DNA from: Sebaldella termitidis ATCC 33386
GTDB taxonomy: Bacteria; Fusobacteriota; Fusobacteriia; Fusobacteriales; Leptotrichiaceae
DNA: 64,000 nucleotides
Assembly: GCF_000024405.1 (NCBI RefSeq)
Contig: NC_013517.1
Span: 4,185,989-4,249,988 of the forward strand
Reading direction: 5' to 3'
Shown: positions 1,945 through 14,182 of the stretch, in pieces
How positions within the stretch are numbered: the first letter of the stretch is position 1
Layout of the letters: each line of letters starts with the position of its first letter
Position numbers and translations under genes: made by a program
Notes under the pieces: generated by a model
What the model was told of the DNA's origin: nothing
Seen by the model: the letters and a program-made list of their open reading frames with translations, nothing else
Database searches by the model: none

Positions 1945-2649
1945 TTAAATTACAAGGCTCATATCCATTTTTTCTCCATTTATCATTGTCGGAAATATAA
2001 GTTTTTCAAGTAATTCAGGTACAAGGGAAGTTTTTGGCTCATCCTTCTGAATCAGTTTATCCCCCTGATAAATTTCCGTTATAATTTTATTTTTATCATT
2101 TAAATACAGCTTCATTGTCATTCCGTTTACCTCGGCAGCTCCGTCTTTAAATATAATTGTACTACCGTAAGCTGTCATTTCTCCGTTTATTTTACCGTCT
2201 ACATCTATTGTAAAATCCTGCTTTATTGCAGTTGTAAGTGTTTTCATCTCTATTTTCGTGGATTCAGGGCGTCCGTCTTTAAAAAATATCGTTACATTCC
2301 CTGTTTTATTCATTTTAGCTGCGTATTCCCCGTCGAATTTAGAATTTATGACATTGAATTTTGTATACTCCCCTTTTGTATTCTTAACTTCTGTCATTCC
2401 GTCCAAATGCCCGTCTTTCAGATTAATAAATCCGCTCCAGCCGGAGGTAAGCTTTTCTTTCGCACTTGTTGCTATTTTTCCTGTATACGGCTGCCCTTTA
2501 TAAGTAACCACTCCTTTATATACCTTACCCTTATGTGTAATCTCTCCCTTTTCATATTTCAGATTTTTATTGGGAAGAGCTACTTCTTTGGGCATGCATG
2601 ATATTACAAGACCTAAAATAAGAGTCAGCATTAATAAATATCTCTTCAT
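1945..2649 (-). CDS. MORN-like repeat lipoprotein, paralogue 1
   Basis: A 234-residue predicted lipoprotein: signal peptide ending in lipobox V-I-S-C with the lipidated Cys at 18. Beyond it is the family signature (LPNKNL), then degenerate MORN_2/YwqK-like repeat units such as YKGQPYTGK, KDGHLDG and FKDGRPE, each built round Tyr/Phe, Gly and an Asp-Gly turn. Three relatives lie just upstream. It is separated from them by a terminator and has its own promoter, so it is expressed independently. Function unknown; a periplasmic or outer-membrane-tethered beta-rich protein is inferred. Related repeat proteins are sometimes annotated as YwqK antitoxins, but nothing here supports a toxin pair. Confidence 0.8.
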   Translation of the reverse strand: MKRYLLMLTLILGLVISCMPKEVALPNKNLKYEKGEITHKGKVYKGVVTYKGQPYTGKIATSAKEKLTSGWSGFINLKDGHLDGMTEVKNTKGEYTKFNVINSKFDGEYAAKMNKTGNVTIFFKDGRPESTKIEMKTLTTAIKQDFTIDVDGKINGEMTAYGSTIIFKDGAAEVNGMTMKLYLNDKNKIITEIYQGDKLIQKDEPKTSLVPELLEKLIFPTMINGEKMDMSLVI

Positions 2650-2686
2650 AAAACTTCCTTTCTCAAGTTGTATATTTTAAAAAAAG

Positions 2687-2715
2687 ATAATAACACAAAA
2701 TAAACGGAAAATCAA
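2687..2715 (-). promoter_or_regulatory. Promoter of lipoprotein gene 1
   Basis: Minus strand: TTGATT, 17-bp spacer, TATTAT, with TGT directly before the -10. It lies between the terminator at 2734-2765 and the gene start at 2649, and shows that this paralogue is a separate transcription unit. Confidence 0.75.
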
Positions 2716-2733
2716 TTAATAATACAGCCGAAA

Positions 2734-2765
2734 GAAAAAAATACCGGAAATATAATCCCGGTATT
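2734..2765 (-). terminator. Terminator of the three-gene lipoprotein operon
   Basis: AATACCGG (2740-2747) and CCGGTATT (2758-2765) form an 8-bp stem followed on the minus strand by a T run. It sits 12 bp after the stop of lipoprotein gene 2. Confidence 0.8.
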
Positions 2766-2776
2766 AATCTATCTTT

Positions 2777-3421
2777 TTATTGCAGCCCTGTTACAGGTAA
2801 TAATTCCTCCGTAAAATCCTTTACTGTAAACAAAAGTATATTTTCTTCCCTTGCCATTAATTTATCTCCCTCATATACTTCTGTAACAAGCTTTTGCTTT
2901 GTTTCGGTATCCAAAAACATTTTTACTTTCAGAGTATCCTTTACAGCCACTCCGCCTTGAAAATCAAGCTGCTTACCGCCTTGTTCTATAAGACCGTTCA
3001 CATTGCCGTCTTTATCAAATATCAGATCCTGATTTATATCATTGGGAAATTTTCCTTTCAGTTCTTTTAGTTCTCCGTTTTCAAAGTTCATAACAAAATC
3101 CCCTATTAACGGATGCTTCAATATATATTCCCCGTTAAATTTTCCGCTTTTTACATCAAATTTGAAATGTGTTTTTGCAGCATCGTTTTTAAAATCCGTA
3201 ATTCCCTCCAGCTTCCCGTCCTTCACACTTATGTATCCTTCTTCAAACTGTTCCTTCTCAGCAATTTTCTTTAGTTTTACTTTTCCTGTGTAAGGCTTTT
3301 CATTATACAGAACTATATTGTCTTTATAATTAAGATGCTTATCCGGTACTGTTACTTCCTTCGGCACCCCGCAAGACAGAATTCCCAATGTACATATAAT
3401 AATTAATAGTAATCTTTTCAT
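2777..3421 (-). CDS. MORN-like repeat lipoprotein, paralogue 2
   Basis: A 214-residue predicted lipoprotein with lipidated Cys at 17 (lipobox I-L-S-C). The mature start carries the family VPDKHL signature, then YTGK and KDGKLEG repeat units that match its neighbours in order and spacing. A GGAGGA site precedes the ATG. It is the last gene of a three-gene operon; the gap to the gene upstream is 10 bp. Function unknown. It shares the overall plan of the other three but has diverged strongly in the C-terminal third, so the duplications are not recent. Confidence 0.8.
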   Translation of the reverse strand: MKRLLLIIICTLGILSCGVPKEVTVPDKHLNYKDNIVLYNEKPYTGKVKLKKIAEKEQFEEGYISVKDGKLEGITDFKNDAAKTHFKFDVKSGKFNGEYILKHPLIGDFVMNFENGELKELKGKFPNDINQDLIFDKDGNVNGLIEQGGKQLDFQGGVAVKDTLKVKMFLDTETKQKLVTEVYEGDKLMAREENILLFTVKDFTEELLPVTGLQ

Positions 3422-3431
3422 TTGTCCTCCT

Positions 3432-4103
3432 CTACTTTTGAGTTTTATAATCCTCTATGGAGCTAAATACTATGTCTTCTATTGTTTCCAAATTTATTCC
3501 CAAAAATTTTTCTGTTTTGGAATAAGATTTTCCGTCAACAAAGCTTTCCATTGTTATCATCCAGGTATTCTGATTTATTGAAAATTTTGCTTCCACATCT
3601 ATGTTGCCGTCATTTTCTATTTTCGCCATGCCGTCTGTAAATACAATTTCAGCTGTGTTTTTTTTATTCTCATGACGAAATACCCCGTTTGCAAGTCCGT
3701 CTGTAAATGTAAAGTTATACTCTGTCTTTTCTTTATCATTACTCATCTGCATAGAAAGTATTACTCCTTTGTCAACATTAAGAGTAAGCTGTCCGTCACC
3801 GCTTTTGTATAAAAGCTCTCCCTGAAATTTACCAGCGTTTATGTTATATTTTAACAGGAATCCGTCTTTTTCATTTTTTATCTCTGCATTTCCTTCCAGG
3901 TGACCGTCTTTTACATACATATATCCTTCATTGCCTCTGGGACTTTTCGGAAGAACCAGTTTGCCAGTGTATGGTTCTTTTTTGTATACTATTGTTCTGT
4001 CAGCCACATTTAAATTTTTATCCGGCAGGACTATTTCTTCCGGTGCTTTACATGCTGTAATTACCAGTAAAACCGGTAAAATAAATAAAAAAAATCTTTT
4101 CAT
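3432..4103 (-). CDS. MORN-like repeat lipoprotein, paralogue 3
   Basis: A 223-residue predicted lipoprotein: hydrophobic signal peptide, lipobox I-T-A-C with Cys at 18, then IVLPDKNL. Repeat units YTGKL, KDGHLEG and FTDGLANG follow. The FTDGLANG unit is almost the same as FVDGLANG in paralogue 4, marking these two as the closest pair. An AGGAGA site sits before the start. It is the middle gene of the operon, with short gaps on both sides. Envelope location is inferred from the signal; the molecular role is not recognisable. Confidence 0.8.
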   Translation of the reverse strand: MKRFFLFILPVLLVITACKAPEEIVLPDKNLNVADRTIVYKKEPYTGKLVLPKSPRGNEGYMYVKDGHLEGNAEIKNEKDGFLLKYNINAGKFQGELLYKSGDGQLTLNVDKGVILSMQMSNDKEKTEYNFTFTDGLANGVFRHENKKNTAEIVFTDGMAKIENDGNIDVEAKFSINQNTWMITMESFVDGKSYSKTEKFLGINLETIEDIVFSSIEDYKTQK

Positions 4104-4119
4104 TCCTATCTCCTATGCT

Positions 4120-4785
4120 TTATTTGTCCTTTCCTTTACTGTTTTCTTCCAGAATACTGGATATTGCTATTATTCTAAAATATTCCATTCCAAAAACTTT
4201 GTTTGGTTTCTCGTCTCTTCCTGCAGATTTCCCGTTAATAAAGAATTCCATTCCCATATCCCCGGTTTCCTGATTTACATAATATTTCACTTCTGTAGTA
4301 ATACCATCCTCTTCAAGAGTAAGTACCCCGTCAGAGAAAACAAATTTTTCACCTTCAGATTCAAACCAGCCGTTAGCCAGTCCGTCTACAAATGTAATGT
4401 CATACTTTACTGTTTTTGAATAATCTCCCAAAAGCTTTACTATTTTTCCGTTATTATAATTTACAGTCATGTTTATTCCCTGATCTGCATTTTTTACTAC
4501 TGTTTCACCTTCAAATTGGTTATTAACTATATTAAATTTTGTGTACATTTGTTTTTTGTCATTTTTCAGTTCAGTGGGACCGTCAAGATGACCGTCCTTA
4601 AATGTTATAAATCCGGATACACTATTTTTATCCTTTAGATTTATCTTTCCTGTATATTTTTCATTTTTAAAAAATACAGTTTCATTTTCTATTTTTATAT
4701 CTTTATCCGGAAGTGTTACTTTCTTTGAAGTTCCACAAGACAAGACCATTAAAACCAATAATATTATTAAGATTCCTTTCTTCAT
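4120..4785 (-). CDS. MORN-like repeat lipoprotein, paralogue 4
   Basis: A 221-residue predicted lipoprotein, first gene of the operon. Signal peptide ends in V-L-S-C with Cys at 17; the mature protein starts with the VTLPDKD signature and contains YTGKI, KDGHLDGPTELKN and FVDGLANG units. AAGGAGG lies 4-5 bases before the ATG. It is transcribed divergently from the metallo-hydrolase at 5001. A -10 TATAAT is seen at 4820-4825. Function unknown; the expanded paralogue set suggests a surface or periplasmic role under diversifying pressure, which is inference. Confidence 0.8.
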   Translation of the reverse strand: MKKGILIILLVLMVLSCGTSKKVTLPDKDIKIENETVFFKNEKYTGKINLKDKNSVSGFITFKDGHLDGPTELKNDKKQMYTKFNIVNNQFEGETVVKNADQGINMTVNYNNGKIVKLLGDYSKTVKYDITFVDGLANGWFESEGEKFVFSDGVLTLEEDGITTEVKYYVNQETGDMGMEFFINGKSAGRDEKPNKVFGMEYFRIIAISSILEENSKGKDK

Positions 4786-5859: not shown

Positions 5860-7515
5860 TCAAGCAAAAAACTCTCTTAAATCTGTTTCTACATCTGTTA
5901 TTCCTGTAAGACCTAGCTGCTCGTTCAGAAGCTTTGCCACGCTCGGTGATATAAATGCAGGCAGTGTCGGACCTACATGTATATTTTTTATTCCAAGATA
6001 CAATAATGCAAGCAATACTATTACTGCTTTTTGCTCATACCATGCAACATTAAACTCTATAGGAAGGTCATTTATATCATTTGCATTAAATATCTCTTTC
6101 AGCTTTAATGCTACTACTGCCCATGAGTATGAATCATTGCACTGTCCTGCATCAAGTACTCTCGGTATTCCTCCGATATCTCCGAGATTCAGCTTGTTAT
6201 ATCTGTATTTTGCACAGCCTGATGTAAGAATTACTGTATCTTTAGGAAGAGCCTCAGCAAACTTTGTATAATACTCCCTGTCATTCATTCTTGCATCGCA
6301 TCCGCTCATTACTATAAATTTCTTTATTGCACCGGATTTTACTGCATCTACTATTTTATCCGCAAGTGCAAATACCTGTGCATGTGCAAATCCTCCTACG
6401 ATTGTTCCTGTTTCTATCTCTTTCGGAGGATCACATTTTTTAGCCAGTTCTATTACTTCTGTAAAGTCAAATTTTCCGTTTTCATCTGCTTCTAATTTTT
6501 TCCATTCAGGATAACCAGTGGCATTTAGTGTAAATATTCTGTCATTATATGTAGAATTAGGTCTCGGCGGTACAAGACAGTTTGTAGTGAAAATTACTGG
6601 TCCGTTAAAAGTTTCGAATTCTTTTACCTGATGATACCATGCATTCCCGTAGTTCCCTGCCAGATGCTTATACTTTTTGAACTCAGGATAATAATGTGCC
6701 GGCAGCATTTCCGAATGTGTATATACATCCACTCCTGTTCCCTCTGTCTGTTCCAGCAGCTCTTTCATGTCCTTCAGATCATGTCCCGAAATCAAAATTG
6801 CAGGATTTTTTCTTACACCTATATTTACTTCTGTTATCTCAGGATTTCCAAATGTACTTGTATTAGCTTCATCTAATAAAGCCATTACGTCTACACCATG
6901 CTTCCCAGTCTCAAATACAAGATTCGTAAGCTCTTCCCCGCTAAGACTTTCATCTTCAGTAGCAAGAAGTGCTTTTTCATAAAAAGCATAAAGCTCTTCA
7001 CTTATTTTTCCAAGATTGTAAGCATGGAAGCCATAGGCTGATATCCCTTTTAATCCGTATAAAATTATTTCTCTCAGTGATCTTACATCCTCGTTTTCCG
7101 TTCTTAATACTCCTACCTTCGGAGCCAGCATTTCTGCTTCCTCTTTTGTAGTAAACTCCCATGTTGTAAGTGGTTTTCCCTCAAATTTAGGATCGAGCGT
7201 CACACCTTCTTTTTCCAGTTCCGCCTTAATGCTCTTTCTGTACTCTATGGCTTTTTTTATGTCTTCCACCATATCTTTCGCATCAAAGTTTGCATTTGTT
7301 ATTGTAGTAAAAAGAGCCTTAAACAAAAATCCGTCAATTTCGCTTGAAACCTTCTTTACCTTTCTTAACTGTGACGAATAATTTGCCATACCTTTTAAAG
7401 CAAATATTAATGCATCCTGCAGATTAGCAACATCGTCAGTTTTACCGCATACTCCTCTGACTGTACATCCGTGATTCTTAAATGTCTCCTGACATTGAAA
7501 ACAAAACATACTCAT
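5860..7515 (-). CDS. hcp: Hybrid-cluster protein / hydroxylamine reductase
   Basis: A 551-residue hybrid-cluster protein. Known: Hcp carries a [4Fe-4S] and a hybrid Fe-S-O cluster; it reduces hydroxylamine in vitro and acts as a nitric-oxide reductase in anaerobes. Seen: N-terminal C-x2-C-x8-C-x5-C (C5, C8, C17, C23), which marks a class I enzyme, and the conserved blocks for the hybrid cluster ([29 protein letters not shown]). I chose the ATG at 7515: GGAGGT is 7 bases upstream, whereas the TTG at 7530 lies in that site. It follows the cysteine protein at 7586-8041 in one operon under the palindrome at 8103-8116. Confidence 0.95.
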
Positions 7516-7585
7516 TCTCTTTACCTCCAAAAAATTTTTTCTTAACTTTTACTATATAAAAACTTTAAAAAAATTCTCTAAGTTA

Positions 7586-8041
7586 TTATAACATAATTTC
7601 ATCTTTTATATTACCTTTTAATCCGACAATTTTTATTTTTACCGGCGGCTTTAATTCGCTCTGACTGAGCGCCTCCCTTACCGTCTGCACCAGTCCCATA
7701 CAGCACGGTACTTCCATTACCAATACTGTAATAGATTTCACTTTCGCGTGGTCGATAAGCTGTCTTACTTTTTTTACATATACATCCTGATCTGAGTCCA
7801 GCTTTGGACAGGCTATAGCCACTGATTTTCCTTTCAGGTAATTAGTATGAAAATCACCCATTGCGAAGGCTGTACAGTCAGCAGCAAGCAGCAGATCACT
7901 CTCCTCATAATACGGAGCTGCCGGTGAAATCAGATGAAGCTGTATAGGCCACTGCTTTAATTGTGAATTCAAATCTCCTGATTTATTTTCACTGATATTT
8001 TCATTTAAGCTCATTGCTTTTGAGCCTGGACATCCTGTCAT
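7586..8041 (-). CDS. Hcp-associated cysteine-rich protein (stand-alone domain)
   Basis: A 151-residue protein that resembles the C-terminal part of the ferredoxin-like proteins commonly encoded beside hcp. Seen: GCPGS at 3-7, then WPIQL, APYY, LLAADCTAFA (C56), IACPKLD (C78) and VPCCMG (C113, C114), the usual conserved cysteine positions. What is absent is the N-terminal 2[4Fe-4S] ferredoxin module found in relatives I recall; here the protein begins at the first cysteine block. GGAGG precedes the ATG closely. It is the first gene of the hcp operon, so a role in electron delivery to Hcp or in its maturation is inferred. Confidence 0.75.
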   Translation of the reverse strand: MTGCPGSKAMSLNENISENKSGDLNSQLKQWPIQLHLISPAAPYYEESDLLLAADCTAFAMGDFHTNYLKGKSVAIACPKLDSDQDVYVKKVRQLIDHAKVKSITVLVMEVPCCMGLVQTVREALSQSELKPPVKIKIVGLKGNIKDEIML

Positions 8042-8074
8042 TTTTCCTCCTAAAGTTTCATTATTTACATGCTT

Positions 8075-8116
8075 ATTGTATAATAAATATTTCTTTTATT
8101 TCGTAACTTATGTTAC
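8075..8116 (-). promoter_or_regulatory. hcp operon promoter with HcpR-like operator
   Basis: A perfect palindrome GTAAC-TTAT-GTTAC lies at 8103-8116. On the minus strand TACAAT (8075-8080) can serve as -10, with an overlapping TATTAT at 8080-8085. With the first, the palindrome is centred at about -41.5, the classic position for a Crp/Fnr-type class II activator. A Crp/Fnr gene starts about 200 bp away in the opposite direction. Confidence 0.65.
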
Positions 8117-8246
8117 ACTTTATAAAAAATTATAAATAACTTTTTTGGTAAATATATAACATATACACTTCAGAAGATTTAAAGAGATTTATATGATAAA
8201 AATTCTGTTCAGGGAGGTTTCCTGTAAAACAAGATGCACATCCTTA

Positions 8247-8275
8247 TTTACATTCTTCTCACATTATTATATAAT
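8247..8275 (+). promoter_or_regulatory. Promoter of the Crp/Fnr regulator-msrB unit
   Basis: TTTACA (8247-8252), 17-bp spacer, TATAAT (8270-8275); the transcript would start about 28 bases before the TTG start codon at 8310. No copy of the GTAAC palindrome overlaps it. Confidence 0.8.
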
Positions 8276-8309
8276 AAATTAATATAACTAACGTAAGGAG
8301 GAGACCTTT

Positions 8310-8972
8310 TTGGAACTTCTAAATACCCTGAAAAATATTTCTATATTTAAGGATATGAATACTGAGGAAATAAAGCAGATTATTCTGAAACTAAATTACA
8401 AAATAAAAAAATATAAAAAGGATGAAACCATCTACTTTAGAGGTGATAAAATAAATTATGCCCTTATTAATCTGTCAGGAGAGCTTTATTCGGAAATGCA
8501 GAAATATAACGGGGATGTAATAGAAGTCGGTATCATTAAGACACATGAGCTTTTTGCCTCTGCATTTATCTTCGGAGATTCCAACACCACTCCCGTAGAT
8601 GTGGTAGCAAGAACAGACTGTGAAATCCTTTCCCTCGAAAAAGAAAAGCTTTTGGAATGTATGCAGGAAAATAAAAAATTTCTTAATAATTTTCTTGATG
8701 AAATATCTAATAAAAGCCAGTTTCTTTCAAAAAGGCTCTGGTTTAATTTTGTAAACAAAAGTATAGAGGATAAAATCATAGATTATATTGAACAAAACAG
8801 CAAGGATAATATTATTCACTTTAGACCGAGTATTTCGGAAATCTCAAGAAGATTCGGAGTTACACGTCCTTCCCTGTCTCGTGAAATTTCTAATTTATGC
8901 AGCAGAGGAGTATTACAGAGAATAGGGAAAAATAAGTATAATATTAATCGCAGAGAATTTGAAAAAATCTAA
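8310..8972 (+). CDS. Crp/Fnr-family regulator, HcpR-like
   Basis: A 220-residue transcription regulator. Seen: an N-terminal cyclic-nucleotide-binding-type beta-barrel (about 1-120), a long dimerisation helix, and a C-terminal winged helix-turn-helix of the Crp type ([21 protein letters not shown], in two parts near 165-190). There is no N-terminal cysteine cluster as in classical Fnr, so sensing is not through a [4Fe-4S] of that kind. Translation starts at TTG: AAGGAGGAG at 8295-8303 fits this codon. Facing the hcp operon across a palindrome suggests it is the hcp activator responding to NO or redox stress, perhaps with haem; that is inference from context. Confidence 0.85.
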
Positions 8973-8995
8973 TTTTCCAGACTGGAAGTGATATT

Positions 8996-9421
8996 ATGGA
9001 TAAAAAAGAACTAAAAGCAAAGCTTACTCAGCTTCAGTACAGCGTTACTCAGGAAGGCGGAACAGAACCTCCGTTTGATAATGAATATTGGGATAATAAA
9101 GAACCCGGATTATACGTGGATATTGTTTCAGGAGAACCTTTATTTTCCTCGGCAGATAAATTCGATTCGGGAACAGGCTGGCCAAGCTTCAGCAAGCCGC
9201 TGGACGAAAAGCTTCTTTTATTTTCAGATGATTATAAACTAAGGCTTCCGCGTACAGAAGTCAGAAGCAAAAATTCCGAGACACATCTCGGCCATGTTTT
9301 TCCTGACGGTCCCGCACCTGCCGGATTAAGATACTGTTTGAATTCAGCTTCACTAAGGTTTATTCCTTTGAAAGACCTTGAAAAAGAAGGCTATAGTGAG
9401 TATTTATCATTATTCAGATAA
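8996..9421 (+). CDS. msrB: Peptide methionine (R)-S-oxide reductase
   Basis: A 141-residue MsrB, which reduces the R epimer of methionine sulfoxide in damaged proteins. Seen: GTGWPSF, the signature [17 protein letters not shown], and RYCLNSASL with catalytic Cys114. This is the only cysteine: both zinc CxxC pairs are absent and the usual resolving cysteine in the GWPSF block is Thr, so recycling must use a direct reductant. It starts 23 bp after the Crp/Fnr gene on the same strand and shares its promoter, tying methionine repair to the nitrosative-stress regulator. Confidence 0.93.
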
Positions 9422-9440
9422 AATTTATTTAAATGTAATG

Positions 9441-9481
9441 AAGAACCGGAGTTCATAAAAATGCAAACGGTTCTTCTTTTT
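9441..9481 (+). terminator. Terminator after msrB
   Basis: AAGAACCG (9441-9448) pairs with CGGTTCTT (9468-9475), followed by CTTTTT. The 8-bp stem has a 19-base loop. Confidence 0.75.
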
Positions 9482-9485
9482 ATTT

Positions 9486-9854
9486 TTACATTAATCCGTT
9501 TGCTTTTAATAAATAATTCAGTCTGTCATTATTATAATTTTTATCATTCAAATAACGCTTCGCTGCATTTTGTGTTCCCGAACCCATTATACCGTCTATA
9601 CTTCCTTTATAATATCCGGAATCTTTCAAAAGCATCTGCATTTCCTTTATTTTATTTTCGGTTGTCGACTTCGATTTTACTTTTACTTTCTTTCCGCCGC
9701 TGCTTATTCCGCTGTTATGATAGTGATACCCTGTGCAAAGACCTTTTGCTCTTGATTTTGCAGAACAGTTATGTCCGCCGCTGCTGTCTGTTCTTCCTGA
9801 ATGTGGGTAACAGGCTATACTTACCGCGAATAATAAAAATAATATTTTTTTCAT
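9486..9854 (-). CDS. Secreted YHYH / peptidoglycan-binding protein
   Basis: A 122-residue exported protein. A signal peptide (about 1-17; the AC that follows could be a lipobox) leads into a small cysteine/histidine domain, HSGRTDSSGGHNCS...GLCTGYHYH, the YHYH motif family. A basic linker (KKVKVKSKS) and a C-terminal peptidoglycan_binding_1-like segment (about 66-122: MQMLLKDSGYYKGSIDGIMG) follow. AGGAGG precedes the ATG. It probably docks on cell wall. The YHYH domain is often seen beside metal-binding or nuclease modules, but no catalytic residues are recognisable here. The promoter carries a palindrome in its spacer. Confidence 0.8.
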   Translation of the reverse strand: MKKILFLLFAVSIACYPHSGRTDSSGGHNCSAKSRAKGLCTGYHYHNSGISSGGKKVKVKSKSTTENKIKEMQMLLKDSGYYKGSIDGIMGSGTQNAAKRYLNDKNYNNDRLNYLLKANGLM

Positions 9855-9972: not shown

Positions 9973-12900
9973 TTATTTATCCAATATATATGAAATTCCT
10001 GCTTTAAAATTATGATTCTCATAATTTTCATTATTTTCATATTCATAACCTGATTTGATAATAATTTTATCAGTCAATCCGTAATTCAGATCTATATTGG
10101 CGCTCCAATTGTCTTGACCGTAATCCAATTTTGCCATTTTGTAATTATTTACCATATTTCTTTCTTTATGATAAGTATCGGTAAAGCTTCTCTCATATCC
10201 TATGCCTGCATTCCATCTTAATTTTCCTGTCGTATTCATAAGATTCAAGCCTATTTTTCCTGATAATCCGTCTCCTTTAACAGAGCTTATATCAGACATA
10301 TTTTCTGTTTTTATAGTTCCCTCGTAAACCGATGTATATTCTACCCCAAAATCAGGACGCAAAATTATACTGTCATTATACAGCTTTTGGTTATAACCAA
10401 AAGAAATTCCGGTTTTTACTACATTTGAATCATATCTGCCTTCCTGTATTCCCGCACCAAGCCAGTCTATTTTTTGCTTATGCCCGTTATGTCCATAGCC
10501 TGCGTGTGCATCAAAACTAAAATTTCCGGCCTGATATTTTCCAAATATATTGATATTGGCAGAATTAATTTCTTCAGTATCATTATTTGAATATCTTACG
10601 TCATTATCAATATAACCAATGGTAATTCCCGCAGATATATTATCATTTAATTTATGTACGATACTTCCGCTGATCCCGTCAGCATCTGTATCATAATTAT
10701 AATTATGCATACTGTTCTGGTTAAAATCCGTATTTCCTTTAGTTCCTATATATTCAAGCGATGTTATTGTTTCTCTCGGCTTCATAAAATCCACTTCTGT
10801 ATCAAGAATTTTTTCTGATATTGAAGTTATTTTATTCATATTATCCAAATCTGCTCTGTTTCTAGGAACATAATTAATTTTTACAGCTGCAGCCGGTTTT
10901 TTTGAATCATCAGAATTTGTATTTTTTTCTGCCGGATATATCGGATCTACGACAATTTCAGAGTCTCCCGATGTATTTTCATTATCCGAAGGAATTGCCT
11001 TTCCGTTATCTTCTGCAGGTTCTGCCGGACTTCCGCCTCCGCTGCTGTCTGTATCCGTATTTTCATCAATCGGATTCAAATCCGGTTCCACTGGCGGAAC
11101 AGGTACTTTTACATTAGTATATAATTCATCCAGTACAGTTACACCATTTTCTATTCTTGAAACTGTTTCGCTTATCCAGTCTTCTCCTGCTTTCATATCT
11201 TCTGAAGTGCTAAACTGAAATTCCGGATCTACTGCCTGCTGTTTGCTTGATATAACTATACTTTTTACCCTTATCTGATCTCCGGTATTTGTAAGTCCCG
11301 ATTCCTCTGTTATACTTTTAGCTGTTTTACCTCCGTTGCTTAATACTAAATCTCCATTTTGTACATTTATACTGTCTGCTATTATTTTACCTGTTTTTGA
11401 AGTTTCATCAGTTATTCCGTCATAGTCCACACCTACATTTATTGTTCCGGTTAATACAAGGTTTCCCAAAGAAGCCTCATTGGAAATATCCGTAAGATCT
11501 TTTGAGCTGCTGAATGCTGCTGTATAATAGTTCTCATTATTTGTCGGTTTTAAATATATATTTCCATTTAATGCCGTATCTCCCATTACCACGAGTTTGC
11601 TAAAATCAGTTAATTCATCCAGCTCCACATTTCCACTTACAATTACTGTGTTATCTCCTTCAGATCCCTGTATTTTACCGCTGATCTTACTTCCGTTATT
11701 TAATTCCAGCACATTATCACCGTTATTGAATTTTATTGCATAGTCCAAACCATTTATTTCACCCGTATTCAAAAAATGTCCGCTGTATTCATTACTTCCT
11801 GCTGTTATTTCGACACCGGCTGCCGAATTTATCACGCCGGTATTTATTGTTCCGGTGTTATTATCAGCATATATTCCTTTATTCCCAGATATTACAGTGC
11901 CTTCATTAAGGACATAAGAATTTGAAGATTCTATTCCGGTTCCATTTACACTATTTATAAGCTCTTTATTTATAACACTTGAAAAATTAGAAATGATCCC
12001 GCTGCTGTCCATACTTTTTATAATCCCGTAATTCTCAACAGAGCTGTCAAAAGCAGATATTCCTGAATTATATTCTGAACTTATTATCCCGCCTTTTGAA
12101 TTAAGAATAAAAGATCCTGTCGAAATTACACCTGTCCCGGTTCCGAATGCTTCTATCACTCCGTCATTTAATAATATACTGTTATCCTTCATATCTATTC
12201 CGGTTCCGTCTCCTGCTATTCTTCCGGTATTATCTATTCTTGAACTGTAAGAAGAAATTCCCTTGCTTTCCGGTCCCTTATTATTAATAGTTCCTGCATT
12301 TATCGTATAAGAGCCTGTACTTTCTATTCCAGTTCCATTATATATTGTTATATCTCCCAGATTCTGGAGATTTCCTTCTTCTGATCTTATCCCTGTATTA
12401 TCAGGTCCTCCGGATGAAACTACAGAACCAAAATTCACGAATGCGGTACCTGCTCTGTATATATGCACACCCGTTCCGCCTGCACCGTTTAAGTTTATAC
12501 TATTTTTATTTTCACCGATATTTCCGGAAGTTATATATATCCCAGTTCCGTTACCTTCCAGATTTATCGTTCCGTTATTTACTATATTTGAATTTACTGA
12601 ATCTGCTGAAATTCCTGTTCCGAAACCTCTTACTGTGATTGTTCCGATATTGTCGCCTTCATTTAAAGATGAATTTTGCAGCATAATTCCTGTCCCGTTA
12701 TTTACTGTTATATTACCTCTGTTATGTACATTTGCTGCATTCTGTGAATAGATTGCAACAGAGTCTTCTCCTTCGGCAGTAAGATTTGCATTATTATATA
12801 AATCGGCATTTCCTTCTCCTGTCACTCCACTCCCTACAGCTTTTAACAAAATTACATTTTGTTTATTCTGATCTGCAGTAATATCGGCATTATTTATGAG

Positions 12901-14019
12901 AGTTGCATTTGCTTCATCAAGATAGCCTCTTATTCGAATTCCTGTAGTGTTATTTCCGTTAATTTCTATAATTCCGTTATTTTCCACTGTTGATGCAACA
13001 CCATATATACCAGTACCATTTTCCTGTACTTGTATTATTCCATTATTTAAAACGATAGATGCAGGAACCTCTCCACTATATTTTGTTGACCTGATTCCCA
13101 CAGTTCCGGAACTTATTATACCGTTATTTACTACATCAGCTCCGATAACAAAAATCCCGTCCCCGTTTTCAGTCAGTATATAACCATCATTTATTACCTT
13201 ACTTTTATTAGAGTTATATGCATTTGAAACTTCTATTCCAACAGCATTATTCATACCTCTCAATATTCCATCGGCAGAATTGATAATTTGTCCCTGATTA
13301 ACCGCTGAAATCAGTGTAGTTTTTTCTGTTCCGATTGTTGTTCCGGAAATTTCACCATTATTTATAAATGTATTATATTCTCCGACATAAACACCAATAC
13401 TGTCTCCGCCGCCGTTCAACTCTATTTTACCGTTATTTTCTGCTGTTCCGCCGTCTCTATCTATAGCCCCGCTGATTCTTATTCCTGTTCCGGCACCGTC
13501 TATCGTTATAGTACCGTCATTCCGTATACTTCCGATAAAATTATTATACGGCCACCCTGCAGAGGCTATTCCTATTCCGGAATTTGAAACATTTATGATA
13601 CCAGTCTGTCTGTTTACCAAAGTTCCTGTACCGTCTCCCGTGAAAAGACCTATTCCGCCTTTTCCGTAAATATTAATAATTCCTGAATTTCCCGCTGAGC
13701 CGTTATTTTTGACCATAATACCGCTGTTATACTCACCGTTAAGATCTATAACATGATTATTTTCAAATATAAGCACATCGTCATCAATACTAACAAACCC
13801 GTCTCCATCAACACTATACCCGTTTAAGAATTTCGTATAGTCCATATCCTTTGGATCCCCACCGTTTTTATATGCACCGTCTCCATTTACAGTCATATCA
13901 TCTATAGAATTTATACGTTTACTTATATTTCTAGTATCTTGTGAACTATTAACAGTTATTTCTGCATTTGATATAACCGAAATTAAAGCCATTAAAAACA
14001 TTATTTTTTTCATTTTCAT
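9973..14019 (-). CDS. Type V autotransporter, large repeat passenger
   Basis: A protein of about 1348 residues that should be exported by its own C-terminal beta-barrel. Signal peptide: basic start, hydrophobic core, cleavage near SNA-E at about 19. The passenger (to about 900) is a long array of degenerate repeats of the type I-x-N-x-G-x-I-x-x-x-G-x-G-T-G-I, as expected for a right-handed beta-helix. An acidic Pro/Ser/Gly linker (about 960-1060) follows, then the autotransporter barrel (NISAGITIGYID..., FDAHAGYGHNGHK...). The last residues are SYILDK, not the usual terminal Phe/Tyr/Trp. Start: ATG at 14019; no strong ribosome site, and the ATG at 14013 is possible. Adhesin-like role inferred. 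Confidence 0.9.
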   Translation of the reverse strand: MKMKKIMFLMALISVISNAEITVNSSQDTRNISKRINSIDDMTVNGDGAYKNGGDPKDMDYTKFLNGYSVDGDGFVSIDDDVLIFENNHVIDLNGEYNSGIMVKNNGSAGNSGIINIYGKGGIGLFTGDGTGTLVNRQTGIINVSNSGIGIASAGWPYNNFIGSIRNDGTITIDGAGTGIRISGAIDRDGGTAENNGKIELNGGGDSIGVYVGEYNTFINNGEISGTTIGTEKTTLISAVNQGQIINSADGILRGMNNAVGIEVSNAYNSNKSKVINDGYILTENGDGIFVIGADVVNNGIISSGTVGIRSTKYSGEVPASIVLNNGIIQVQENGTGIYGVASTVENNGIIEINGNNTTGIRIRGYLDEANATLINNADITADQNKQNVILLKAVGSGVTGEGNADLYNNANLTAEGEDSVAIYSQNAANVHNRGNITVNNGTGIMLQNSSLNEGDNIGTITVRGFGTGISADSVNSNIVNNGTINLEGNGTGIYITSGNIGENKNSINLNGAGGTGVHIYRAGTAFVNFGSVVSSGGPDNTGIRSEEGNLQNLGDITIYNGTGIESTGSYTINAGTINNKGPESKGISSYSSRIDNTGRIAGDGTGIDMKDNSILLNDGVIEAFGTGTGVISTGSFILNSKGGIISSEYNSGISAFDSSVENYGIIKSMDSSGIISNFSSVINKELINSVNGTGIESSNSYVLNEGTVISGNKGIYADNNTGTINTGVINSAAGVEITAGSNEYSGHFLNTGEINGLDYAIKFNNGDNVLELNNGSKISGKIQGSEGDNTVIVSGNVELDELTDFSKLVVMGDTALNGNIYLKPTNNENYYTAAFSSSKDLTDISNEASLGNLVLTGTINVGVDYDGITDETSKTGKIIADSINVQNGDLVLSNGGKTAKSITEESGLTNTGDQIRVKSIVISSKQQAVDPEFQFSTSEDMKAGEDWISETVSRIENGVTVLDELYTNVKVPVPPVEPDLNPIDENTDTDSSGGGSPAEPAEDNGKAIPSDNENTSGDSEIVVDPIYPAEKNTNSDDSKKPAAAVKINYVPRNRADLDNMNKITSISEKILDTEVDFMKPRETITSLEYIGTKGNTDFNQNSMHNYNYDTDADGISGSIVHKLNDNISAGITIGYIDNDVRYSNNDTEEINSANINIFGKYQAGNFSFDAHAGYGHNGHKQKIDWLGAGIQEGRYDSNVVKTGISFGYNQKLYNDSIILRPDFGVEYTSVYEGTIKTENMSDISSVKGDGLSGKIGLNLMNTTGKLRWNAGIGYERSFTDTYHKERNMVNNYKMAKLDYGQDNWSANIDLNYGLTDKIIIKSGYEYENNENYENHNFKAGISYILDK

Positions 14020-14182
14020 CACAACTTTTCATTTTTTCGGAACTATACTCTGCTCCGTTATATTAATAATACATCCTTTTAATTTATGAATGCTTATTCT
14101 ATTCTTTTTTATTGATTAGAATGTTATAATATAATTCTAAGAAAAATTATTCATGATAAAAATTAAATTTTCTCTCTAAAAA

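What the first reader, a model, noticed from the sequence alone, without database searches (positions are those of the whole stretch)
8103..8116. GTAAC-N4-GTTAC operator between hcp and a Crp/Fnr regulator
A perfect 14-bp palindrome lies 62 bp before the hcp operon start, centred at about -41.5 from the best -10. The Crp/Fnr gene next door lacks an Fnr cysteine cluster and is co-transcribed with msrB. I recall HcpR-type regulators in clostridia and others using sites of this form. Together it forms a small regulon: NO/hydroxylamine removal plus methionine-sulfoxide repair.
Basis: partly seen in the sequence, partly recalled or inferred. Interest (0 to 1): 0.5.

Follow-up and report, generated by a model that had tools for sequence, protein, structure and literature searches.

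The report
NO-defence switch upstream of hcp operon
A 14-base palindrome beside a nitric-oxide-defence gene is almost certainly the landing site of the neighbouring regulator, a type of switch already described in 2005, and following it through related bacteria points to a little-studied metal-handling gene cassette that appears to be under the same control.

Summary
In detail: GTAACTTATGTTAC lies exactly at 8103-8116, between a frdX-like/hcp operon (minus strand) and a CRP/FNR gene (plus strand). It is the published HcpR2 operator (GTAACnnnnGTTAC; Rodionov 2005), and the neighbour carries the published specificity pair (Arg-Pro, CRP 180/181). Genome-wide the motif is no commoner than a reversed control; position is decisive. 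An exact site precedes hcp or its operon in 36 of 44 Fusobacteriota genomes (hcp present, sites fully listed). In 46 of 64 operator-like sites a -10 box starts exactly 22 nt after the palindrome: centre -41.5, class II activation. Genomes whose related regulator has Ser/Thr at 181 mostly carry GTTGCnnnnGCAAC before hcp instead, at the same spacing.

Correction: msrB is probably not driven from the palindrome; the regulator has its own promoter-like sequence 130 bp away. A more constant partner is a cassette elsewhere in this genome (DUF1858-solute-binding protein with a ferric-binding-protein-like fold, HypB-like GTPase, ABC ATPase), with an exact site 60 bp upstream. Across 98 genomes, 50 of 53 with the cassette have the regulator, against 48 of 65 with hcp.

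Verdict: new member of a known kind. The cassette is the part worth testing.

The parts
8103..8116 (.). HcpR2-type operator GTAACTTATGTTAC
   Evidence: exact match; present between the hcp operon and the regulator in all 4 genomes of the genus, this one included; published HcpR2 consensus
8075..8080 (-). -10 box TACAAT of the frdX-hcp promoter, 22 nt past the palindrome (operator centre at -41.5); no good -35
   Evidence: the 22-nt spacing holds in 46 of 64 operator-like sites
7586..8041 (-). first gene of the operon, 151 aa, homologous to the C-terminal part of a FrdX-like protein but without the N-terminal ferredoxin-like part
   Evidence: ORF; 250-aa homologue with CxxCxxCxxxC motifs in L101 and in-frame stops upstream of the window ATG; no Pfam or NCBIfam hit up to E 1; the name frdX is by analogy
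5860..7515 (-). hcp, hybrid cluster protein / hydroxylamine reductase
   Evidence: Prismane 1.2e-173, NF003658 6e-247
8310..8972 (+). HcpR2-type CRP/FNR regulator, 220 aa; recognition helix R186-P187-S188-L189-S190-R191; Met63 aligned with the heme-ligand Met68 of P. gingivalis HcpR
   Evidence: cNMP_binding 3.2e-13
8247..8275 (+). probable separate promoter of the regulator (TTTACA-17-TATAAT, 11 of 12)
   Evidence: best of 13 consensus matches in 7400-9600, where shuffles give 9.4 on average; inferred
8996..9421 (+). msrB, probably co-transcribed with the regulator; not clearly under the palindrome
   Evidence: TIGR00357 3.7e-58; 23-bp gap

Best explanation
The palindrome is the operator of the adjacent HcpR2-type CRP/FNR regulator. 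When NO (or nitrite-derived NO) reaches the cell, the regulator, probably through a bound heme with Met63 as one ligand, becomes able to bind DNA. A dimer then sits on GTAAC-N4-GTTAC centred at -41.5 and recruits RNA polymerase in class II fashion to a promoter that has a -10 but no good -35, switching on the frdX-like/hcp operon so that Hcp removes NO. The same protein very probably also activates a second operon of this genome (DUF1858-SBP, HypB-like GTPase, ABC ATPase; site at C1:2108110) and perhaps pflB. Shown here: site, position, conservation, spacing, residue-base correlation, regulator-target co-occurrence. Inferred from studied relatives: NO and heme sensing, and activation. Not shown: binding.
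For: (1) Exact published HcpR2 consensus and the published R180/P181 rule (helix TRPSLSRE). (2) Site between hcp operon and regulator in all 4 genomes of the genus. (3) Exact site 0-300 bp upstream of an hcp gene in 32 of 44 genomes (32 of 67 hcp genes, many genomes having several copies), plus the 4 genus members where hcp is second in the operon, against about 4e-4 expected per 300 bp; 5 more genomes carry 1- or 2-mismatch versions. (4) -10 exactly 22 nt past the palindrome in 46 of 64 operator-like sites, next best offset 10 of 64. (5) Natural switch: relatives with R-S/T at 180/181 go with GTTGCnnnnGCAAC in 9 of 11 hcp upstreams (L206-L216), and 9 of 9 of those have the -10 at 22 nt. (6) All 65 genomes with an R-P regulator hold hcp and/or the cassette. 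(7) Relatives: in C. difficile hcp and frdX rise about 200-fold with NO in wild type and not in the hcpR mutant; in B. thetaiotaomicron hcpR deletion abolishes hcp transcription, HcpR binds heme, and an AlphaFold3 model of an HcpR-RNA-promoter complex places Pro187/Ser188/Arg191 at the recognition site; P. gingivalis HcpR Met68 aligns with Met63, which is Met in 64 of 64 orthologues counted.
Against: The motif is not enriched genome-wide. No binding or expression data for this organism. In the other Leptotrichiaceae examined the regulator is not next to hcp, and in one genus of 13 genomes the sites before the cassette are decayed. The cassette site of this very genome has only TAAGAT (4 of 6) at 22 nt. 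Outside the close clade Met63 is often replaced (Lys, Ser, Ile, Arg and others), so sensor chemistry may vary. 17 of 65 hcp genomes lack a detected R-P regulator: 10 have the S/T181 type, 7 are draft assemblies of 62-99% completeness. R-P homologues also occur in 6 of 16 genomes whose cassette lacks the palindrome.
Confidence: 0.93

Rival explanations
1. One dimer at the palindrome also controls the divergent regulator-msrB operon (autoregulation plus methionine-sulfoxide repair in the regulon).
For: Divergent arrangement, 23-bp gap to msrB; the regulator-msrB order recurs in G088, G089 and G066.
Against: The site is about 170 bp from the likely start of the regulator transcript, which has its own TTTACA-17-TATAAT. 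A full msrB follows the regulator in only 4 of 69 loci, 15 of which end soon after the regulator. The side of the operator facing away from the target shows a -10 at 22 nt in only 1 of 64 sites.
Confidence: 0.2
2. The palindrome is a repressor site: the regulator or another factor blocks the hcp promoter until NO appears.
For: Palindromic operators near promoters are often repressor sites (general knowledge).
Against: Fixed -41.5 spacing and lack of a good -35 are activator geometry; hcpR mutants of C. difficile and B. thetaiotaomicron lose hcp induction or expression.
Confidence: 0.04
3. Another CRP/FNR protein of this genome binds here.
For: 28 first-look candidates exist in the genome.
Against: Only one match at E <= 1e-10; the neighbour has the specificity pair that predicts this motif; adjacency in all 4 genomes of the genus.
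Confidence: 0.03
4. Chance palindrome.
For: Not enriched genome-wide.
Against: 17 of 100,000 simulations of the intergenic region; conservation and spacing.
Confidence: 0.002

Closest known systems
HcpR2 regulon of Rodionov et al. 2005 (PMC1274295; passages read)
   Same: Same operator consensus, same Arg-Pro specificity pair, hcp target, no Fnr cysteine motif; they list F. nucleatum with an hcp-only regulon
   Different: Here hcp is the second gene behind a truncated frdX-like gene; the regulon inferred for the phylum is wider than hcp (cassette, globin, flavodiiron-type protein, DUF1858 and other genes); 17 of 65 regulator genomes lack hcp, whereas the paper says the branch always co-occurs with it
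C. difficile hcpR-frdX-hcp (PMC12915319; passages)
   Same: HcpR-type regulator needed for NO induction of frdX and hcp
   Different: C. difficile HcpR2 has Ser at 181 and a different motif (PMC1274295); the frdX-like protein here lacks the ferredoxin-like part
B. thetaiotaomicron HcpR-SnoA-hcp (PMC13370916, preprint; passages)
   Same: HcpR of 222 aa with Pro187/Ser188/Arg191 at the modelled DNA contact; heme binding; hcp activation
   Different: No regulatory RNA was identified at the window locus (no Rfam hit in L005; no dedicated search)
P. gingivalis HcpR (PMC12750200; passages)
   Same: CRP/FNR family and heme-ligand methionine aligned
   Different: Gln at position 181 and another operator (PMC1274295)
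HcpR1 of delta-proteobacteria (PMC1274295, passages)
   Same: hcp/frdX targets
   Different: Motifs wTGTGAnnnnnnTCACAw or TTGACnnnnGTCAA; the paper contrasts their Glu181 with Pro in HcpR2

Membership tests
HcpR2 regulator (Rodionov 2005) | Operator GTAACnnnnGTTAC upstream of hcp | tested here: met
HcpR2 regulator (Rodionov 2005) | Arg180 and Pro181 in the recognition helix | tested here: met
   R186-P187 in the window protein; R and P in 64 of 64 orthologue loci counted and in G074, read separately
HcpR2 regulator (Rodionov 2005) | No canonical FNR cysteine motif | tested here: met
   Cys at 104, 117, 197 only
HcpR2 regulator (Rodionov 2005) | Own branch in the CRP/FNR tree | not tested
   No tree built; best solved relatives by sequence are 1o5l (3.9e-23; a Thermotoga protein as I recall) and 9day/5v30 (P. 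gingivalis HcpR, organism from recall)
HcpR2 regulator (Rodionov 2005) | Co-occurrence with hcp | tested here: inconclusive
   Met in the window genome; in the phylum 48 of 65 regulator genomes have hcp, Fisher p 0.04, and the 17 without hcp hold the cassette
Heme/NO-sensing HcpR | Heme-ligand methionine | tested here: met
   Met63 aligned to Met68 by phmmer; Met in 64 of 64 orthologue loci; heme binding itself not tested
Heme/NO-sensing HcpR | NO-dependent DNA binding and activation | not testable with these tools
   needs the bench
Class II CRP-type promoter | Operator centred at -41.5, weak or absent -35 | tested here: met
   transcription start not mapped
HcpR1 | Glu181 with TTGAC or TGTGA half-sites | tested here: not met
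   Pro187, GTAAC half-sites
FNR | N-terminal cysteine cluster for [4Fe-4S] | tested here: not met

The most novel reading that the evidence does not exclude
The most constant partner of this regulator is not hcp but a cytoplasmic cassette: a DUF1858-solute-binding protein without an obvious signal peptide and without a permease gene, whose fold is nearest ferric-iron-binding proteins; a HypB/CobW-like GTPase; an ABC ATPase; and often an 80-aa zinc-ribbon protein. It is switched on through the same GTAACnnnnGTTAC site in Fusobacteriota, Marinifilaceae-type Bacteroidota, some Clostridia/Tissierellia and an Aminicenantes MAG, and in 14 of 80 loci hcp lies downstream. It would be an NO-induced iron-delivery, metal-centre assembly or repair system, acting on Hcp's hybrid cluster where Hcp exists and on other NO-damaged clusters elsewhere.
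Probability: 0.33. Interest if true: 0.75.

Novelty: new member of a known kind. Interest (0 to 1): 0.42.

Why it matters
As an operator it bears out a 2005 prediction on a much larger sample and adds three quantitative points: a fixed 22-nt spacing to the -10, a natural residue-181/half-site switch inside one phylum, and a regulon wider than hcp. The cassette under the same control makes a concrete question testable: whether anaerobes carry a dedicated NO-induced system for building or mending metal centres such as the hybrid cluster.

Tried and rejected
Genome-wide enrichment of the motif as evidence: rejected; in the own genome it equals or falls below the reversed control, and in the phylum some genomes have more and others fewer than the control.

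msrB as a regulon member: down-weighted.

Cassette as an obligate Hcp maturase: not supported. In 98 genomes hcp and cassette are independent (35 both, 30 hcp only, 18 cassette only, 15 neither; Fisher p = 1.0); many Leptotrichiaceae have the cassette and regulator without hcp.

The -10 control from sites taken as unassigned gave 12 of 48 flanks with at least 5 of 6 TATAAT at offset 22, far more than I expected. Nine of the 12 come from sites that turned out operator-like (pflB in L003, L123, L125; a conserved leader in L106, L109, L112, L115, L117, L118). Restricting, after the fact, to the 13 control sites that marks as inside an ORF leaves 3 of 26 flanks, two of them from L167 (recount). 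By genus, 8 of 10 genera have a median hcp site with at least 5 of 6 at offset 22. The 64 sites (23 hcp, 21 cassette, 20 other) were chosen by target type and many come from related genomes, so they are not independent.

Rows dropped: from the residue counts, L048 (extraction failed; read later and it has R-P and the Met), L101, L102, L103 (divergent relatives, R-S, R-E, R-S, Lys at the Met position) and the window itself. From, three N-terminally incomplete hcp rows (G013:C244, G004:C28, G004:C35) and one cassette row (G067:C90); one search covers 58 of the 98 genomes, those whose exact sites were fully listed. Of the palindrome-positive cassette loci outside the phylum 15 of 25 were given to (one genome not held), of the negative ones 16 of 41. 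One search kept the best 80 of 334 relatives. L267 is titled Aliarcobacter but its genes are close to Fusobacteriaceae ones, so that MAG may be mis-binned. In one search, 13 of the 19 loci given had a near-motif site (at most 2 mismatches) that passed the script's filter.

Rfam search of six loci gave nothing up to E 0.1. The structure model of the window regulator, made without an alignment, is useless (mean pLDDT 40.8). In the fold search the DUF1858 part (residues 1-81 of the model) was barely covered.

Literature searches for the cassette (DUF1858 with nitric oxide; DUF1858 with hybrid cluster protein, no paper; HcpR regulon in Fusobacteria; hybrid cluster protein with maturation, ABC and HypB) listed no paper whose title or shown abstract describes it; of the papers they listed, passages were read in three (PMC6710368; PMC6344411; PMC1274295). 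RegPrecise and the supplements of PMC1274295 could not be read.

Full report
What is there. The palindrome GTAACTTATGTTAC is at 8103-8116. It lies between a minus-strand operon, whose first gene (7586-8041) is a 151-aa frdX-like protein and whose second is hcp (5860-7515), and a plus-strand CRP/FNR gene (8310-8972) followed 23 bp later by msrB (8996-9421). The window is part of a 4.49-Mb genome in 3 contigs. The cassette gene of the congeneric G088 and that of a contig titled Sebaldella sp. are both 63% identical to the window genome's, so the genus is probably Sebaldella (Leptotrichiaceae, Fusobacteriota). That it is S. termitidis is my recollection of the genome size, not a result.

Is it more than chance? 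The motif itself is not rare enough: 5 exact copies in the genome against 5 for the reversed pattern, 101 against 145 with up to one mismatch. In the 268-bp intergenic region the exact motif appears in 17 of 100,000 first-order simulations. Conservation is the real evidence. All 4 genomes of the genus have an exact copy between the frdX-hcp operon and the regulator. Among 58 genomes of the phylum whose sites were fully listed, 44 have hcp; 32 have an exact site 0-300 bp upstream of an hcp gene (32 of 67 genes), and the 4 of the genus have it upstream of the operon's first gene: 36 of 44. Of the other 8, G082 and G086 have one-mismatch and G074, G076 and G078 two-mismatch versions, G031 and G033 have a different regulator and motif (below), and G008 is 67% complete. 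The density of exact sites predicts about 4e-4 per 300 bp.

How it works. TACAAT starts exactly 22 nt after the palindrome on the minus strand, putting the operator centre at -41.5; the -35 position reads CGAAAT (1 of 6 against TTGACA) at a 17-nt spacer, at best 3 of 6 at 18 nt. Over 64 operator-like exact sites in the phylum (23 hcp, 21 cassette, 20 other), 46 have at least 5 of 6 TATAAT at offset 22; the next best offset has 10. Of 13 decayed sites in Leptotrichiaceae that passed the script's filter, 12 keep such a hexamer at 22 or 23 nt. This is the geometry of a class II activator. My control for this was contaminated; see Tried and rejected.

The regulator. Its recognition helix is TRPSLSRE. 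Rodionov et al. 2005 (PMC1274295; passages) reported an HcpR2 branch of CRP/FNR proteins that recognises GTAACnnnnGTTAC, linked to Pro at CRP position 181, with other motifs where 181 is Ser or Gln. All 64 orthologue loci counted here have R-P, and so has G074. A natural test exists in the phylum: genomes G030-G037 and G048 carry relatives with R-S or R-T at these positions, and 9 of the 11 hcp upstream regions examined from them (L206-L216) have GTTGCnnnnGCAAC, in 9 of 9 cases with a -10 at 22 nt. The two without it, L208 and L211, belong to genomes whose other hcp copy has it. G049, with an R-S relative near an hcp, was not examined upstream of its hcp. Met63 aligns with Met68 of P. gingivalis HcpR, a heme ligand there (PMC12750200, passages), and is Met in 64 of 64, but it is often replaced in homologues of clostridial and spirochaete genomes. 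C. difficile hcpR is required for NO induction of hcp and frdX (PMC12915319, passages), and B. thetaiotaomicron HcpR binds heme and the hcp promoter and is needed for hcp transcription (PMC13370916, preprint, passages). NO sensing and activation in the window organism are inferred from these.

The regulon. Of the 5 exact sites in this genome two (L001, L004) lie inside ORFs. One (C1:2108110) is 60 bp upstream of a three-gene operon: a 398-aa protein with DUF1858 and SBP_bac_6 domains, a HypB/CobW-like GTPase and an ABC ATPase; its hexamer at 22 nt is only TAAGAT (4 of 6). One (C1:2896356) has a perfect TATAAT at 22 nt and lies upstream of pflB, as in two congeners, although pflB also has a promoter-like sequence nearer its start (by eye). 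The cassette has an exact site in 27 of 42 genomes; of the other 15, 13 belong to one Leptotrichiaceae genus with decayed sites and G066 and G003 have one mismatch. In several Fusobacteriaceae-type genomes the regulator is divergent from the cassette rather than from hcp. Presence across 98 genomes: cassette with regulator 50 of 53 (Fisher p 6e-11), hcp with regulator 48 of 65 (p 0.04), hcp with cassette independent (p 1.0); no regulator genome lacks both. Shared ancestry inflates these values.

Beyond the phylum. A scan of genome contigs kept the best 80 of 334 relatives of the cassette protein. An exact site lies 20-230 bp upstream in 38 of 80: 13 of 14 titled as Fusobacteriota and 25 of 66 others; hcp lies downstream on the same strand in 14 of 80. 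Of 15 palindrome-positive outside loci given, 14 genomes were held, and 14 of 14 have a homologue of the regulator with R-P. Of 16 palindrome-negative ones 7 have a homologue and 6 have an R-P one; in two of these six an exact site lies close to such a regulator beside hcp (L323, L334). A model of the cassette protein of locus L232 (mean pLDDT 86.2) is nearest ferric-binding proteins: 3od7, Z 22.9, rmsd 3.5, 285 aligned residues, with 1y4t first by Foldseek; sugar-phosphate, polyamine and metal-citrate binding proteins of the same fold follow closely, so the ligand is not settled.

Other operator-like sites in Fusobacteriaceae-type genomes precede a globin, a flavodiiron-type protein, DUF1971, cupins, NIR_SIR, a small zinc-ribbon protein (HypA match below Pfam's cut-off), a PAS-hemerythrin-DUF1858 protein and the Hcp-associated redox-disulfide protein TIGR03980 (one or two examples of each were scanned). 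A DUF1858 protein under another NO regulator, NnrR of Bradyrhizobium diazoefficiens, is in print (PMC6710368, one table row seen).

A full msrB follows the regulator in 4 of 69 loci, 15 of which end soon after the regulator. The best promoter-like site of the region, TTTACA-17-TATAAT at 8247-8275, would serve the regulator and is 130 bp from the palindrome. I therefore treat msrB as a passenger of the regulator's operon until shown otherwise.

Novelty. The operator, the regulator type and the hcp target are published. What I did not find in print are the spacing rule, the within-phylum switch and the wider regulon, above all the cassette; for the cassette four literature searches listed no description, but the library is partial, RegPrecise was not available, and I ran no search for the spacing rule or for the GTTGC motif beyond a find in PMC1274295 (no occurrence in the main text; its Figure 3 was not seen). 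'HcpR2' is used in Rodionov's sense; a Desulfovibrio paper seen only as a reference also uses the name, I think for a different protein.

Noticed in passing
L106, L107, L109, L112, L115, L117, L118 (one Leptotrichiaceae genus), around 1501: An exact palindrome with a -10-like hexamer at 22 nt (23 in L107), followed by a leader without a conserved ORF and a terminator-like hairpin (by eye), upstream of a 224-aa DtxR/MntR-like gene (name by eye): possibly a small RNA under HcpR2. Folding z-scores -1.3, -2.5 and -2.3 in the three of seven folded; no Rfam hit in the five of seven searched.
   Followed up: partly
L003 (G000 C1:2896356), L123, L125: Exact palindrome with TATAAT at 22 nt upstream of pflB (formate C-acetyltransferase), suggesting a glycyl-radical enzyme under NO control.
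   Followed up: partly
7586-8041: frdX-like gene without the N-terminal ferredoxin-like part that the relative in L101 carries.
   Followed up: partly
L235, L240, L248, L273: In Cloacimonadota and Spirochaetes loci the cassette with hcp is accompanied by an Rrf2-like regulator gene (by eye), as if NsrR-type control replaces HcpR.
   Followed up: no
9973-14022 and 1945-4785: A 1349-aa autotransporter-like protein, and four similar-looking lipoprotein-like genes in tandem (both by eye).
   Followed up: no
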